From an uncultured Desulfosoma sp. (GTDB taxonomy: Bacteria > Desulfobacterota > Syntrophobacteria > Syntrophobacterales > DSM-9756), in the NCBI GenBank assembly GCA_937960435.1, contig CALGPN010000004.1:1-56240 (forward strand): 56,240 nucleotides of DNA, given 5' to 3'. The notes beneath the pieces are model-generated. The model saw only the letters and a list, made by a program, of their open reading frames with translations. It did no database searches and was not told the DNA's origin. This document shows positions 50,807 to 56,239 of the stretch, piece by piece. A program made the position numbers and the translations under genes. Each line of letters begins with the position of its first letter. The stretch's first letter is position 1.

Positions 50807-50860
50807 TGAAATTCTTCACAAGGTCCCCTCGTGCCTTGTGCGTCCCCCAGAGGGCTCTTG

Positions 50861-51036
50861 CCTTCCCGCCTTCCCGCCTTCCCGCCTTCCCGCCTTCCCG
50901 CCTTCCCGACTTCCCGACTTCCCGCCTTCCCGCCTTCCCGCCTTCCCGATTTCCCGATTTCCCGATTTCCCGATTTCACGATTTCACGATTTCACGATTT
51001 CACGATTTCACGATTTCACGATTTCACGATTTCACG
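50861..51036. repeat. 22 tandem copies of an 8-bp repeat in homogeneous blocks
   Basis: Units in order: CCTTCCCG x6, ACTTCCCG x2, CCTTCCCG x3, ATTTCCCG x3, ATTTCACG x8 (176 bp, no indels). The variants are grouped in blocks, as expected from slipped-strand expansion. It separates the nuo promoter from the TPR-CAPP-cas operon. The repeat contains no stop codon in the plus frames, so the TPR gene appears to have a long proline/serine/phenylalanine-rich N-terminal extension; I treat that as an artefact because the proper ribosome site is after the repeat. Confidence 0.95.
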
Positions 51037-51141
51037 ACTCCACCCCCCCTTTGTAAATTTCGGCCTCGGGGCCGTAAGCCTTTAACAAAAACCGAAGTTT
51101 ATTGGGCCGAAAAACAGAGACTTTCGGAGGGAGGAACGATC

Positions 51142-52524
51142 ATGACGGACAAACCGACGCCGCCTGTGGTTCTTGTCCCGGCGGGATCCTCGGTGGAAGA
51201 AGAAACGCCGGAAATCAACCGAGCCGAAAAGGACGGCGCCTTTCTGGATCAGTTGGCGACCCAGGAAGTGAGCGCCCAGGAGTTGCAAAAAGCCTTCGGG
51301 CGCCTGTGGGCGGAGATCGAGACCCTGCGCGCCGAAGCTCGATGGCAGGAACTGGTGGATCTCCTCCACCCGGCGGACCAACGGTTTCCGGAACTGGTGG
51401 AGGCGGGACTGGGCCCGGCCCTTTGGGGGGAAACGGTCTTCGCCCTCTGCCACTTGAAAAGGTACGATGCGGCCTTGGATTTGGCCCGCCGGTGTGTCCG
51501 AGAATGCCCCGAGGACTATCATGCGCACGCCCGGTTGGCCTATGCGGCCTACGACAGCTTGTATGCGGCCAAAAATCGGGAGGTGGTCCTGCACCCCGAA
51601 GAACGCAAGGCGCGCATCGAACTGGCTCACAAGCACTTCGCCAAGGCCCAGGCGTTGCGCCCGGACAATGTCACCCAGTTCTACCGCCAGGGGATGCTTT
51701 ATAAAGCCGTCCAGGCCAAGCCCGAGCGGGCGTTGCCCCTTTTTCGGAGCGCGGTGAAAAACTGGGAAGCCTTGGACAATGAGCAAAAGAAGGCGCGACA
51801 CCAGGAACGGAAAAATTACGTCAAGGCTCTTTATCAATGGGCGTCGTGCCTCCTGGCTCTGGGCAACGCCAAGGAGGCTCTGGCCGTGCTCACCCGGTGC
51901 CTGGAAGAGGACGCTTCATCCGAGCATTTTTCCGTGGTGCACAAGTATTTTGCTTTGGGAAAGGTGCATCACGCTCTGGGAAACCTCGAGGAAGCCGACA
52001 AAGCTCTGAATTTTGCGGCCATCCAAGCCGATCCCGGCGATCACGATTATGTCTTCGAACTCCGGGCTCGAGTGGCGTTGGCGCAACGGCGTTTCGAGGA
52101 AGCGGAAAAAGCTTTGGGGCGCATTCCGCCGCATCGGCGCCGTCCCTACGTGCTGTGGACGGAAGCCGATGTGCTGGCGGCCCGGGGCCGCTTGGACCAG
52201 GCCAAGGGGGTGCTCAAAAAGGCCGCGGAAAAGGATCGCCGTGGCCGTCACAAGGCCTTGGTGCGCCTGGCAAAGATCGCTTTTCGAGAAAACGCCTTTG
52301 AAAAGTGCCTGCAGTATGCGCGGGAAGCGTCCGATTTTTGCCGCCAGACGTACCAAAACCCCCATGATGAGGCGCTTTTTTGGGAGGCGGCGGCCAACTT
52401 TCGGCTGGCTCGCCACAAAGAGGCATGGGAGGTGGCTAAGGGGCTGGAAGCTTTTCGGCCCCACTACCCGCACTTGGGGGAACTGAAAAAGCAAATCGCC
52501 CGAGCCCTTAACAAGAAAAAATGA
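51142..52524 (+). CDS. TPR-repeat protein, first gene of the CRISPR adaptation operon
   Basis: 460 residues from MTDKPTPPVVLVPAGSSVEE, with GGAGG 9 nt upstream. After an acidic N-terminus, successive helix pairs of TPR type fill about 90-460: LCHLKRYDAALDLARRCVRE, CLLALGNAKEALAVLTRCLE, ALGNLEEADKALNFAAIQAD, VALAQRRFEEAEKALGRIPP, VLAARGRLDQAKGVLKKAAE. No signal peptide or membrane segment, so a cytoplasmic scaffold. 44 nt before the primase-polymerase gene on the same strand. The context suggests it holds the adaptation complex together; this is inference. Confidence 0.8.
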   Translation: MTDKPTPPVVLVPAGSSVEEETPEINRAEKDGAFLDQLATQEVSAQELQKAFGRLWAEIETLRAEARWQELVDLLHPADQRFPELVEAGLGPALWGETVFALCHLKRYDAALDLARRCVRECPEDYHAHARLAYAAYDSLYAAKNREVVLHPEERKARIELAHKHFAKAQALRPDNVTQFYRQGMLYKAVQAKPERALPLFRSAVKNWEALDNEQKKARHQERKNYVKALYQWASCLLALGNAKEALAVLTRCLEEDASSEHFSVVHKYFALGKVHHALGNLEEADKALNFAAIQADPGDHDYVFELRARVALAQRRFEEAEKALGRIPPHRRRPYVLWTEADVLAARGRLDQAKGVLKKAAEKDRRGRHKALVRLAKIAFRENAFEKCLQYAREASDFCRQTYQNPHDEALFWEAAANFRLARHKEAWEVAKGLEAFRPHYPHLGELKKQIARALNKKK

Positions 52525-52568
52525 CAGGCAGCCGGTAAAAGGCCGGGCGAATCGAAAGGACACAGGCC

Positions 52569-54248
52569 ATGGATGCCGTGAAACCTCCCGTGAAATCCCA
52601 GGTCCGTGCCGCGGTGGACTATGCCTTGGTGCTTCGAAACCTGGAAAAGCGCATTGTGGAAAACCGCGACACCGACTCCATTCTCCGGATCGTGCGCCGT
52701 CCCGAGTTCTGGCAAAGGCTTTCGCCTGAAGACGCCCTGCGCTGCGCCCGACTGCTGCAAGCCGCCGGGGATGTGGCGACGGCTCTGGCCGTTTTGGAAG
52801 GGCTCACGAGCCGGGCGCCGGATTTTACGGATGCCTGGCGGGAGCGCGTGGCTTTGCTGGAAGTGCTGGGGAAAAACGCCGTCTCGGGCGGGTCCGTTGA
52901 GGCCGCATCGCACGAAGGCTTGGGGTCGAGACAGGAAGAAAAGGGTGAAACCGTCAAGAGCCCGCCGTGGGAGGAAGGGGATTTGCCCGAGGCGAAATTT
53001 CGAGAAGAGGACTTTTCGCAGGTGGAAAGCCCCTTCCATGAATGGCGCCGCAGGGAAGCGGCACTGGCGCGCTACATGGCGCTTTTTCAGGGCCGAGAGG
53101 ATTGTTTTGCGCGCCAGTGGGTGGACCGAGAAAAAGCCAGCCAGGGTTATGTGCCGGTCAGGCGCCCTTTGGAAGCCGCCGATGTGATGGAGCATCTCCA
53201 AGGCCGGAAAACCTACGGGATCTATCTCTTGCAGCAGGACAGTCGGGTGCGGCTCGGGGTCATCGATGCGGATTTGAACCTGTCTTTACGTTCTTCGGAA
53301 GCCATCGGCAAAAAGCGCGATTTGGTGCGTCGCGAGCAACGTTACCTTCTGAGTCGGCTCACGGAAATGGGTGCGGCGCGCCATCTTCCGTGTCTTGTGG
53401 AGTTCAGCGGCGGCAAGGGCTTTCATTTTTGGTTCTTTTTGGAAGAACCTTTGCCGGCGGGGCAGGTGCGACGGGTTTTGCAGTCTTTGGCCGGGGCGAT
53501 TCAGGCGGATCTTTCGTGTTTTCAGCTGGAGGTTTTCCCGAAGCAGGATCGGCTGGAAGGCAAAGGTTTGGGGAACTTGGTGAAGCTCCCATTGGGCATC
53601 CACCGCCTCACGGGCCGTCCGTCGTACTTTCTGCACACGAGGGATCGGTCTTTGGATGGGCAGCTGGCCGTTTTGGACAAGGCCCGTCGGATCCCGGTGC
53701 GGATTTTTGAGAATCAGGACACGGGCGGGGGCAAGGCCCCGGTTGTGGTGCATCCGCGCCGGGAAAAATGGGCAGCGGATTACCCGGAACTGGCGGTGCT
53801 GGAGGAGCGCTGCGCGGCTTTGGGGCAGATTCTCGTGGAATGCCGGCATCACCGGACGCTGACAGTCCGAGCGGAGAAGATTCTTCTTGGGACTGTCGGG
53901 CATTTGCCGCGGGCGAAGATCCTCTTGCACCATGTGTTCCAGGCGCTGCCGGAATACAATCCCCATTATGTGGACTATCAGCTCTCGCGGCTTCGCGGGA
54001 CCCCTTTGGGGTGCCGGAAGATCCACCGGCTCCTCGGCATGGATCGAAGTTTTTGTGACTTCGGACCCAATGTCGCCTATGGGCACCCGTTACGCCACTG
54101 GCCGGAATGGAGCGAGCCTGAGACGGCGGTGAAGGCCGAAAGGGTGGAGAATCTACGCGAGGCCTTGGACGTCCTCAAGGAAGCCCTGAGGATCGTGGAA
54201 AGGTTTTTGGATCGCGGCTCTCCGCGGGCGGGAGAAGGGGAGCGCTAA
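52569..54248 (+). CDS. CRISPR-associated primase-polymerase (CAPP, AEP superfamily)
   Basis: 559 residues; GAAAGGA upstream. About 15-100 is TPR-like (LLQAAGDVATALAVLEGLTS). About 165-360 is an archaeo-eukaryotic-primase domain of the TOTE/PrimPol type: YMALFQGREDCFARQW, motif I VIDADLN (D233, D235), motif II SGGKGFHFWFF (H286), the segment VFPKQDRLEGKGLGNLVKLP LGIH for motif III. The C-terminal region has C425-x-H-H, C482 and C496, which could bind a metal or Fe-S cluster. Published CAPPs are linked to Cas1-Cas2 and proposed to make or process DNA during spacer acquisition. Followed 26 nt later by cas1. Confidence 0.85.
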   Translation: MDAVKPPVKSQVRAAVDYALVLRNLEKRIVENRDTDSILRIVRRPEFWQRLSPEDALRCARLLQAAGDVATALAVLEGLTSRAPDFTDAWRERVALLEVLGKNAVSGGSVEAASHEGLGSRQEEKGETVKSPPWEEGDLPEAKFREEDFSQVESPFHEWRRREAALARYMALFQGREDCFARQWVDREKASQGYVPVRRPLEAADVMEHLQGRKTYGIYLLQQDSRVRLGVIDADLNLSLRSSEAIGKKRDLVRREQRYLLSRLTEMGAARHLPCLVEFSGGKGFHFWFFLEEPLPAGQVRRVLQSLAGAIQADLSCFQLEVFPKQDRLEGKGLGNLVKLPLGIHRLTGRPSYFLHTRDRSLDGQLAVLDKARRIPVRIFENQDTGGGKAPVVVHPRREKWAADYPELAVLEERCAALGQILVECRHHRTLTVRAEKILLGTVGHLPRAKILLHHVFQALPEYNPHYVDYQLSRLRGTPLGCRKIHRLLGMDRSFCDFGPNVAYGHPLRHWPEWSEPETAVKAERVENLREALDVLKEALRIVERFLDRGSPRAGEGER

Positions 54249-54274
54249 GCAGTGCCGCACGGAGGCCCCAGGCC

Positions 54275-55321
54275 ATGGATCGCTATTATGTTCTGGAACC
54301 CGGCAGTCAACTGCGCAAGCAAGGGGAAGAGCTCATCATCTGGCGGAAAAACGAACCCATCGGGAGGATTCCGCTGGAAAATCTGGAGCAGTTGGTCTTG
54401 GTGGGCACTTCGCTTAGCGGGGCGGTGATTCAGGAGCTGATGCGCCGCCGGGTGGAGACGGTGTTGTTAAGCCCTTGGGGGCATTTTCGGGGCCGGATCG
54501 TTGTGGACGAGCACAAACATGTGGCGCGCCGAAAGGCCCAGTACTTGCGTTTTAGCGACCCCAAGGAGGCGGTGCGCATTGCTCGGCGCTTTGTGGAAGC
54601 GAAGCTCAAGAATGCGGCGCGTTTTCTGTCTCGTCGGGCGGGTCAGTATGGTTCGGAGGGGCTTCGGCAGGCGGCGGGACAGATTTTGGGCCTGGCCCGC
54701 ATGGCGGCCGTGGAAGAAGACATGGAAATGGTGCGGGGGCTGGAGGGTCGTGGGGCGAACATCTACTTCGGGGTCTTTCAAGAGCTCATTCGGGTGCCGG
54801 GTTTCGCCTTCACGGGCCGGACCAAGAGACCGCCCTTGGATCCCATGAACGCTTTGTTGTCCTTTACTTACACGCTGCTCACCAACGAAGTGCTCACGGC
54901 CGTCAACATTGTGGGGCTGGACCCCTATTTGGGCACGCTTCATGCGGAGGATTACGGTCGGCCGTCCTTGGCGTGCGATCTTGTGGAGGAGTGGCGGGTG
55001 CATTTGGGGGATCGGTTGGTTTTAGGGTTGGTGAATCGGCGGGCCGTGACGCCGGAGGATTTTGTGTGGCGGGAGGTCGCGGCGGCGGACGGGGTGGATG
55101 AGGAGGACCTTCGGAGCCATCGTCCGGTGGAGATGAAGCCGAGAATCGCCCGGGCCTTTGTGGATGCCTACGAGCGGTGGATGAACTCGCCCATAAGGTG
55201 TCCTTTTGCCAACACGATGACGACCTATCGGGGGATCATTCGCAATCAGGCCCGCCGATTCCTTCGATTTCTCATGAGGGAGACGGAGGCCTACGAACCT
55301 TTTCCCTGGCCGCTTTTGTGA
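54275..55321 (+). CDS. cas1: CRISPR-associated endonuclease Cas1
   Basis: 348 residues. N-terminal beta-sandwich (YYVLEPGSQLRKQGEELIIW), a DRIP-like IPLENLEQLVLVG and SPWGHFRGRI. The alpha-helical catalytic domain has metal ligands E157 (LEGRGANIYFGVF), H223 (YLGTLHAEDYGRPSLACDLV) and D235. It integrates prespacers into the array together with Cas2. All key residues present, so it should be active. The usual fused reverse transcriptase or Cas4 is absent. Confidence 0.96.
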   Translation: MDRYYVLEPGSQLRKQGEELIIWRKNEPIGRIPLENLEQLVLVGTSLSGAVIQELMRRRVETVLLSPWGHFRGRIVVDEHKHVARRKAQYLRFSDPKEAVRIARRFVEAKLKNAARFLSRRAGQYGSEGLRQAAGQILGLARMAAVEEDMEMVRGLEGRGANIYFGVFQELIRVPGFAFTGRTKRPPLDPMNALLSFTYTLLTNEVLTAVNIVGLDPYLGTLHAEDYGRPSLACDLVEEWRVHLGDRLVLGLVNRRAVTPEDFVWREVAAADGVDEEDLRSHRPVEMKPRIARAFVDAYERWMNSPIRCPFANTMTTYRGIIRNQARRFLRFLMRETEAYEPFPWPLL

Positions 55322-55343
55322 GGGGGGGGCGGAGGAGAGCCGC

Positions 55344-55628
55344 ATGTCGTTGTTTTATGTGGTCTGTTTTGATGTCAGTGACGATCGGACGAGGTATCGT
55401 GTGGTGAAGGTGCTGAAGGGGTATGGGTATCGGGTGCAGAAGTCTGTTTTTGAGTGTCCGCGGCTTACGGAGAAAAAACTGCTGACGTTGATGGATCGTC
55501 TGGAGCGGTTGATCGATCACACGACGGACACGGTGCGGTTTTATCGACAGTGTGAGGTGTGTTTAAAGTCCTTTGAGCACGTCGGTGTGGGGACGCCGCC
55601 CAAGGCGGAAGCGTACGGGGCGACCTAG
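55344..55628 (+). CDS. cas2: CRISPR-associated protein Cas2
   Basis: 94 residues. Ferredoxin-fold start MSLFYVVCFDVSDDRTRYRV with the conserved Asp10, then VVKVLKGYGYRVQKSVFECP RLTE and the basic DTVRFYRQCEVCLKSFEHVG. It bridges two Cas1 dimers in the integration complex. 22 nt after cas1 with GGAGG upstream; last gene of the operon. Confidence 0.95.
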   Translation: MSLFYVVCFDVSDDRTRYRVVKVLKGYGYRVQKSVFECPRLTEKKLLTLMDRLERLIDHTTDTVRFYRQCEVCLKSFEHVGVGTPPKAEAYGAT

Positions 55629-56203
55629 GTTGAGGGACCGGGAAGATAAGCTGTGAGGGGATAATGCCGGCGCCCGTGTTGCGGGTAGGGGCGCAGCGCC
55701 GCTGCGCCCACCGTAGAGATATTTTGGATGGATTTTCGCACGTGCTAGGAAAGACTGAACCGGGCCTTGGTGCCATCGGCTGAGCGGCTAGGTGGTTGAG
55801 CTTAAAAAGAGCATGGTCGAAGGCCATTGAGGTGTCGTCTTGTGGTTGGGGGCGATGGGCTTGGGATGAGGGCTTGGCGGGGTTGCGGGGGGCTAATGAT
55901 GGTGCAAGATGATTGAATCGTCAGGGGTAAAGGTGTGCAGGGGTGGGGAAAGCGTATGGGGGTGTGATGGGGGAGGGGTGGGCGCATTGGCGGGTTAGAA
56001 CGCTCTTTTTGGCTATCATATTGAAGTTGTTTGAGATTCAGCTTAGGGGTCCGCCGAAAGAAAAAACACATGAGATATGAGAAACTTGACTTTGACGACG
56101 GGGCCGCTTGGAAGCATTTTGGAAGCTGTTTGGTGAACCTGAAAGGGGGGTACGCCGAAACGACGCTGGGAGCCTTGACAGGCGGTGGCGTCGCGCAGTA
56201 AGA
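55629..56203 (+). other. CRISPR leader-like non-coding region, strongly G-rich
   Basis: 575 bp between cas2 and the presumed first CRISPR repeat. No frame shows homology. From about 55845 to 55995 the plus strand is markedly G-rich, with many runs of three to six G. The distal part is AT-richer. GGGGTCCGCCGAAA (56046-56059) recurs with one mismatch as GGGGTACGCCGAAA (56147-56160). TTGACA at 56175-56180 lies 23 nt before the repeat. Confidence 0.6.
55689..55709. repeat. 9-bp perfect inverted repeat
   Basis: gggcgcagc/gctgcgccc around GCC, 60 nt after the cas2 stop, followed by ACCG without a T-run. Resembles widespread intergenic palindromes; could terminate or stabilise the cas transcript. 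Confidence 0.6.
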
Positions 56204-56239
56204 GTCCTAAGGCAGGCCCCGATCTGAGGGGATTGCGAC
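56204..56239 (+). CRISPR. probable first CRISPR repeat; array continues past the window
   Basis: 36-nt candidate beginning GTCCTAAGGCAGGCCCCGAT and ending CTGAGGGGATTGCGAC. Evidence: 36 nt is a usual repeat length, it begins GTC and ends GAC, it has an internal CCCC/GGGG stem around a 7-nt loop, it ends with the GGATTGxxAC type of 3' end common in repeats, and it lies just downstream of cas1-cas2 plus a leader-like region. Only one copy is inside the window, so repetition cannot be seen directly. Confidence 0.6.

What the first reader, a model, noticed from the sequence alone, without database searches (positions are those of the whole stretch)
51142..55628. Primase-coupled CRISPR adaptation module: TPR protein + CAPP + Cas1 + Cas2
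Four tightly spaced plus-strand genes (gaps 44, 26 and 22 nt) put an AEP primase-polymerase and a stand-alone TPR scaffold into one operon with Cas1 and Cas2. No interference genes, Cas4 or reverse transcriptase accompany them here. Known CAPPs have been linked to adaptation, but the separate TPR protein as first gene looks like a dedicated, little-described partner. It may assemble primase and integrase so that single-stranded fragments are converted to duplex prespacers.
Basis: partly seen in the sequence, partly recalled or inferred. Interest (0 to 1): 0.88.

Follow-up and report, generated by a model that had tools for sequence, protein, structure and literature searches.

The report
CRISPR memory-writing operon with helper protein
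This is the spacer-capturing operon of an ordinary type III-A CRISPR system in a sulfate-reducing bacterium, whose primase enzyme has a dedicated but unstudied TPR partner protein.

Summary
The four genes are real: TPR protein, CRISPR-associated primase-polymerase (CAPP, class A1), Cas1, Cas2, with gaps of 44, 26 and 22 nt. They are not an isolated module. The contig ends one base after the first CRISPR repeat (56204-56239). The genome carries a type III-A csm operon on another contig, whose end holds the same kind of 8-bp tandem array as window 50860-51037; in two same-genus genomes that operon lies directly beside TPR, divergently. CAPP-Cas1-Cas2 is a published module (Zabrady 2021), and PADLOC already holds the TPR protein as an uncharacterised family (PDLC01172).
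New here is how tight the link is. In 395 genomes of the phylum the TPR family occurs in 20, in 20 of 20 directly 5' of CAPP (CAPP: 54 of 395). In a second scan 26 of 30 loci have CAPP, some in rearranged operons. On a tree of 71 CAPPs, all 38 with a TPR gene fall in one clade of 39; the other row is cut by a contig end. So TPR looks like a third adaptation subunit of one CAPP clade. Its scaffold role and single-strand-to-duplex prespacer conversion are untested. A related clade of 19 CAPPs has lost the primase active site.

The parts
50860..51037 (.). 8-bp tandem array (TTCCCGAT-like units) between the nuo operon and the TPR gene
   Evidence: Tandem Repeats Finder; the same kind of array is at the end of contig C24, facing cas6, and a variant at the end of contig C60, facing a NUDIX gene
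51142..52524 (+). stand-alone TPR protein, 460 aa, first gene of the adaptation operon
   Evidence: PADLOC PDLC01172 568 bits; family alignment of 19; AlphaFold2 TPR solenoid, pLDDT 90.9; GGAGGGAGG upstream of the ATG
52569..54248 (+). CAPP, class A1 CRISPR-associated primase-polymerase, 559 aa: N-terminal TPR, AEP core about 166-376, C-terminal domain
   Evidence: NF040561 554 bits; AEP-TOTE; best solved relative 7nqd, Marinitoga CAPP, E 4e-33 (for the name); DxD at 233-235 and SGGKGFH at 280-286 present
54275..55321 (+). Cas1 integrase, 348 aa
   Evidence: PF01867 284 bits; E157, H223 and D235 invariant in 63 of 63 aligned Cas1 (that these are the catalytic residues is recalled); only cas1 match of the genome
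55344..55628 (+). Cas2, 94 aa
   Evidence: PF09827 80 bits; TIGR01573 above its cut-off
55629..56203 (+). probable CRISPR leader
   Evidence: lies between cas2 and the first repeat; last 120 bases only weakly like relatives: 73 matches with G211 and 70 with G316, 65 with G276, against a shuffle mean of 61.6 and maximum of 68 in 50 shuffles of the G211 leader
56204..56239 (+). first, leader-side CRISPR repeat of an array cut off by the contig end
   Evidence: GTCCTAAGGCAGGCCCCGATCTGAGGGGATTGCGAC; same length and orientation as the 36-base repeats of the arrays after cas2 in same-genus G211 and G316, of at least 97 and 93 units

Best explanation
The operon is the adaptation (spacer-capture) module of a type III-A CRISPR-Cas system in a relative of Desulfacinum. 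Cas1-Cas2 integrate prespacers at the leader side of the array that begins at 56204. CAPP supplies DNA priming and synthesis, either turning single-stranded fragments into duplex prespacers or filling the gaps left by integration. The 460-aa TPR solenoid is a dedicated third subunit of this CAPP clade, most likely a scaffold that holds CAPP and Cas1-Cas2 together. Shown here: gene identity, intact catalytic motifs, linkage to an array and to an effector operon in the genome, near one-to-one co-inheritance of TPR with one CAPP clade. Inferred: physical contact, the scaffold role, the DNA substrate. My confidence is about 0.9 that it is a type III-A adaptation module, 0.8 that TPR works with CAPP/Cas1/Cas2, and 0.5 for a scaffold joining primase and integrase.
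For: TPR family in 20 of 395 genomes of the phylum, 20 of 20 directly 5' of CAPP. In a second, pattern-based scan 26 of 30 loci hold CAPP. Membership survives changed gene order: L151 TPR-cas1-cas2-CAPP, L155 and L170 CAPP-cas2-TPR-cas1, L159 cas2-TPR-CAPP-cas1. The 38 TPR-bearing CAPPs of the tree lie in one clade of 39 (96/80 support; 0 of 500 label shuffles as low). 28 of 33 TPR-less CAPP loci in the tree had at least 1500 bases upstream of CAPP and no TPR-family ORF was labelled in any of the 33. Cas10 match in 18 of 20 TPR genomes. Own csm1-csm5 above curated cut-offs, cas6 above Pfam's. Catalytic motifs intact. Published: MpCAPP binds Cas1, CAPPs prime, polymerise and displace strands, and the partner Cas1-Cas2 integrates spacers (PMC8211822: abstract, section 6, passages).
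Against: No interaction was tested. CAPP already has its own N-terminal TPR domain, so the extra protein may do something else. Most CAPP genomes show no TPR gene: 34 of 54, of which five were cut short upstream of CAPP. Distances correlate equally with CAPP (0.907) and Cas1 (0.921), so no partner is singled out. Four of 30 loci lack CAPP nearby (L163, L165, L168, L171); one of them, L168, shows no cas gene. Cas10 was not found in 2 of 20 TPR genomes, G105 and G349. Fold matches are generic TPR scaffolds.
Confidence: 0.62

Rival explanations
1. The TPR protein couples adaptation to the type III-A effector: it contacts Cas10/Csm or a signalling sensor so that spacers are taken when the effector is active, rather than bridging CAPP and Cas1.
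For: 18 of 20 TPR genomes have a Cas10 match; cas6-cas10-csm genes lie divergently next to TPR in G211, G316 and G276, and one gene away in G162; CRISPR-associated Cas_APE2256-family genes lie near TPR in L163 and L054.
Against: Genes homologous to these effectors also flank TPR-less CAPPs (several named by eye), so they do not explain why the TPR gene follows one CAPP clade; effector neighbours vary while CAPP and cas1 mostly stay.
Confidence: 0.2
2. The TPR protein is an accessory of CAPP alone (dimer control, DNA loading or folding) and does not touch Cas1-Cas2.
For: It marks a CAPP clade; in MpCAPP the fused TPR segment takes part in self-association (PMC8211822, passages); TPR pI 9.0 would allow DNA contact.
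Against: TPR sits next to cas1 and is separated from CAPP by cas2 in L155 and L170, and lies beside a cas1 gene with no CAPP in L171, where the TPR frame is broken.
Confidence: 0.2
3. The window is a true effector-less adaptation module.
For: No effector gene was seen between the nuo operon and the contig end.
Against: The genome encodes cas6 and csm1-csm5 on C24, whose end carries the same kind of 8-bp array; in G211 and G316 nuo is next to the NUDIX gene and cas6 is next to TPR.
Confidence: 0.03

Closest known systems
CAPP_A 'CAPP-TPR' operon of Marinitoga piezophila (Zabrady et al. 2021, PMC8211822)
   Same: CAPP with N-terminal TPR, AEP core and C-terminal domain upstream of cas1 and cas2; type III; NF040561 family
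   Different: In M. piezophila the further operon partner named is Argonaute, and in what I saw TPR is described only as a domain of CAPP (section 6 and passages); here a separate 460-aa TPR gene leads the operon and Argonaute is not among the four genes
PADLOC family PDLC01172 'TPR'
   Same: The stand-alone protein matches over nearly its whole length, 568 bits
   Different: The model line gives a name only, 'TPR repeats containing protein'; no function or partner is stated in it
Type III-A (Csm) CRISPR-Cas
   Same: Own genome has csm1-csm5 above cut-offs and cas6
   Different: Adaptation module has CAPP and TPR in addition to cas1-cas2; no Cas4 match
FLSHclust adaptation-linked genes (PMC10910872)
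   Same: Names DNA polymerases, AEP and PrimPol among genes associated with adaptation modules (passages)
   Different: The passages seen do not describe a stand-alone TPR partner of CAPP

Membership tests
CAPP class A, type 1 (CAPP-TPR) | AEP Prim-Pol core with DxD and SGxxGxH motifs | tested here: met
CAPP class A, type 1 (CAPP-TPR) | N-terminal TPR domain and C-terminal (PriCT-like) domain | tested here: met
   TPR_14 at 56-94, 23.8 bits against a cut-off of 23.5; NF040561 matched from position 2 to 515 of 515; no separate PriCT match was reported
CAPP class A, type 1 (CAPP-TPR) | operon with cas1 and cas2 | tested here: met
CAPP class A, type 1 (CAPP-TPR) | DNA priming and polymerase activity | not testable with these tools
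   motifs intact; no biochemistry
Stand-alone CAPP-linked TPR family (PDLC01172) | near full-length profile match | tested here: met
   19-454 against 12-446 of 448, 568 bits
Stand-alone CAPP-linked TPR family (PDLC01172) | location beside CAPP | tested here: met
   this window; family-wide 20 of 20 and 26 of 30 with CAPP in the locus
Type III-A CRISPR-Cas | csm1/cas10 with csm2-csm5 in the same genome | tested here: met
Type III-A CRISPR-Cas | effector operon physically joined to this adaptation module | tested here: inconclusive
   different contigs here; adjacent in G211 and G316, close in G162 and G276; 8-bp array at the C24 end and in the window
Cas4-linked adaptation module | Cas4 in the genome | tested here: not met
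   no PF01930 match at E 0.001
Reverse-transcriptase-linked adaptation module | reverse transcriptase in the module or genome | not tested
   none among the four genes; genome not searched

The most novel reading that the evidence does not exclude
The TPR protein is a new dedicated Cas adaptation subunit: an obligatory scaffold that forms a stable TPR-CAPP-Cas1-Cas2 complex in which de novo primer synthesis and spacer integration are coupled, so that single-stranded fragments become spacers. The related clade with a dead primase core and two cas2 genes is then a sister design that has kept the CAPP fold as a structural part only.
Probability: 0.35. Interest if true: 0.75.

Novelty: new variant of a known kind. 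Interest (0 to 1): 0.52.

Why it matters
Which polymerase makes or finishes spacers is still unsettled in CRISPR adaptation, and CAPP is a candidate. A partner protein that is co-inherited with one CAPP clade across sulfate reducers gives a concrete, testable third component, and a named, cultured carrier (Desulfacinum infernum DSM 9756) makes the test practical. The sister clade that lost the primase active site offers a natural control for what CAPP does besides synthesis.

Tried and rejected
Rejected: 'effector-less module' at genome level. Rejected: generic TPR protein landing here by chance. Not supported: plasmid or virus cargo: no TPR match in 72,556 plasmid records; none in viral contigs (8 stretches matched a pattern, none encoded a relative). 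CAPP matches in plasmids (31 records, 15 listed) and phages (10 records) are partial and below 33% identity in the rows shown. Open: whether the nuo-TPR junction in the window is a misassembly or a real recombination at the 8-bp array; both fit.

Led nowhere: Rfam (no match); fold search of the TPR model (generic TPR scaffolds); co-evolution correlation (all about 0.9); leader comparison (weak). Complex modelling was not possible, because the predictor folds single chains. Two papers that I recalled as likely to catalogue CRISPR accessory genes are not held, so an earlier listing of the TPR gene there cannot be excluded; PADLOC shows that the family is already catalogued. Carriers in other phyla were not tested beyond the one-pattern scan.

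Rows dropped: L101 (split CAPP), L159, L163, L165, L168, L170 and L171 were not in the CAPP tree, because no long enough CAPP ORF was read. Six of the 30 loci (L143, L146, L148, L162, L167, L169) come from genomes already counted; without them 20 of 24 have CAPP. L163 and L059 also share some exact sequence; I counted them as different genomes because their contigs differ in length. L165 has an 85-residue CAPP-like piece upstream, which I did not count as CAPP.
Full report
WHAT IS THERE. The four plus-strand ORFs are present at the stated coordinates with gaps of 44, 26 and 22 nt. The 460-aa first protein matches PADLOC PDLC01172 'TPR repeats containing protein' at 568 bits. The second matches NCBIfam NF040561 'CRISPR-associated primase-polymerase type A1' at 554 bits and Pfam AEP-TOTE; its nearest solved relative is 7nqd, E 4e-33, the Marinitoga CAPP Prim-Pol domain (named). 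It keeps DxD (VIDADL) and SGGKGFH. Cas1 and Cas2 are clear; Cas1 keeps E157, H223 and D235, invariant in 63 of 63 aligned Cas1. Cas1 is the only match in the genome.

THE SURROUNDINGS. The window is a whole contig (C4, 56240 bases). Its last 37 bases are a 36-base CRISPR repeat plus one base. The repeat has the length, orientation and most letters of those in the arrays that follow cas2 in two same-genus genomes, G211 and G316 (at least 97 and 93 units). So an array most likely starts at 56204 and the assembly breaks in it. Upstream of TPR, 50860-51037 is an 8-bp tandem array. With up to two mismatches to a three-unit pattern it occurs in this genome only here and at the start of contig C24 (17 overlapping matches); a variant ends contig C60. 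C24 reads cas6-csm1-csm2-csm3-csm4-csm5, with csm1-csm5 above NCBIfam cut-offs and cas6 above Pfam's (it was below NCBIfam's). In G211 and G316 the nuo operon (Pfam-confirmed in the window) stands next to a NUDIX gene; in G162 one further gene lies between. In G211 and G316 the cas6-cas10-csm operon, 63-85% identical to that of C24, stands divergently beside TPR; in G162 a Cas_APE2256-family gene lies between; in G276 a more distant effector (Cas10 26% identical) stands there. In this genome the NUDIX gene (C60) and cas6 (C24) both face contig ends made of the array. Either the assembler joined nuo to TPR through the repeat, or this strain recombined there. In both cases the absence of interference genes in the window does not make the system effector-less: the genome encodes a type III-A effector. 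Cas4 gave no match in the genome.

IS THE TPR PROTEIN A DEDICATED PARTNER? In 395 genomes of the phylum the family (E at most 1e-30) occurs in 20 and CAPP A1 in 54. In 20 of 20 the TPR gene is directly 5' of CAPP; the chance that all 20 fall among the 54 is 1.5e-19. Cas1 follows in 19 of 20; the exception, G295 (L061), has a second TPR copy instead. A scan of the 84,980-species collection with one conserved peptide pattern gave 30 loci, titled Desulfo-something, Syntrophobacteraceae or Deltaproteobacteria (two of the last, L149 and L151, are labelled Myxococcota); 26 of 30 hold CAPP and 25 of 30 hold cas1 or cas2. Of the four without CAPP, L165 ends inside TPR, L163 has TPR downstream of what reads like a translated CRISPR array and near a Cas_APE2256-family gene, L171 has a broken TPR frame beside cas1, and L168 has no cas gene in view but nitrogen-metabolism genes such as P-II. 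Gene order changes in L151, L155, L159 and L170 while membership stays. The phylum sample and the one-pattern scan cannot exclude carriers in other phyla; a search centred on another genome's phylum was not accepted.

ONE CLADE. A maximum-likelihood tree of 71 CAPPs puts all 38 TPR-bearing ones in one clade of 39 rows (support 96/80); the odd row, L041, has only 159 bases upstream before its contig ends, and is what raises the label changes from one to two. Of the 33 TPR-less loci in the tree, 28 had at least 1500 bases upstream of CAPP, and no TPR-family ORF was labelled in any of the 33. A quick Cas1 tree of 63 rows also needs two changes, with L041 again nested among TPR rows; its careful form was not finished. 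Distances of TPR, CAPP and Cas1 in 32 loci correlate at 0.907 (TPR-CAPP), 0.921 (TPR-Cas1) and 0.891 (CAPP-Cas1), which shows joint inheritance but not who touches whom.

HOW IT MOST LIKELY WORKS. Published work, of which I saw abstract, section 6 and passages (PMC8211822), shows that CAPPs prime and extend DNA, displace strands, bind Cas1 and act beside an integrating Cas1-Cas2. The TPR model is a confident solenoid (pLDDT 90.9, pTM 0.80) whose fold matches are general TPR proteins such as the O-GlcNAc transferase TPR domain and BBSome subunits. The protein is basic (pI 9.0), as are the other three. I therefore read it as a scaffold subunit for CAPP and Cas1-Cas2. The step from single-stranded fragment to duplex prespacer is inference. 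Rivals are coupling to the Csm effector, or a role on CAPP alone; the second is weakened by L155 and L170, where TPR adjoins cas1 and is parted from CAPP by cas2.

WHAT IS KNOWN. CAPP with cas1-cas2 is published, with TPR described there as a domain of CAPP. In eight paper searches (open-licence library only), with passages seen in PMC8211822, PMC10910872, PMC12669027, PMC8616872 and PMC10345425, I saw no account of a separate TPR partner. PADLOC nevertheless holds it as a family, so it is catalogued and not unknown. I rate it a new variant of a known kind.

A SIDE RESULT. Of the 71 CAPPs, 19 lack both DxD and SGxxGxH at the aligned places while 52 of 52 others keep both; the 19 form one clade with 100/100 support and none has the TPR gene. 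Four tested are AEP-TOTE members above cut-off, three of these also NF040561. A model of one (pLDDT 82.9) matches the Marinitoga CAPP Prim-Pol domain with target TM-scores of 0.83-0.86, so the fold seems to stay while the metal ligands are gone. Two cas2-like genes are seen in 14 of these 19 loci against 0 of the 34 phylum-scan loci with an intact CAPP; counting only loci with at least 2500 bases after CAPP it is 12 of 13 against 0 of 19.

Noticed in passing
L055:1615-3324, L087:8933-10591, L079:8902-10692 and 16 further CAPP loci: A clade of 19 CAPP-family proteins has lost both catalytic motifs of the Prim-Pol core; the one modelled keeps the fold (TM-score up to 0.86 to the Marinitoga CAPP domain).
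   Followed up: partly
L055, L070, L079, L085-L089, L091, L094, L095, L097, L099, L105: Loci of the dead-core CAPP clade mostly carry two cas2-like genes: 14 of 19, or 12 of 13 with enough sequence downstream, against 0 of 34 (0 of 19) loci with an intact CAPP. L101, with a split CAPP, also has two.
   Followed up: partly
window 50860-51037; L110 1-170; L141 about 1825-1928: The same kind of 8-bp tandem array is in the window and at the ends of contigs C24 and C60, at two places where gene order differs from same-genus relatives; misassembly or recombination.
   Followed up: partly
L061 7377-12273 (G295): TPR-CAPP followed by a second TPR-family copy and no cas1 in the stretch seen; the copy's match has one in-frame TGA.
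   Followed up: no
L168 723-2150: A TPR-family gene with no cas gene in view, beside a P-II nitrogen regulator and other genes; possible remnant or independent use.
   Followed up: no
L155, L170, L151, L159: Re-ordered adaptation operons (CAPP-cas2-TPR-cas1; TPR-cas1-cas2-CAPP-cas6; cas2-TPR-CAPP-cas1), useful for asking which partner TPR follows.
   Followed up: partly
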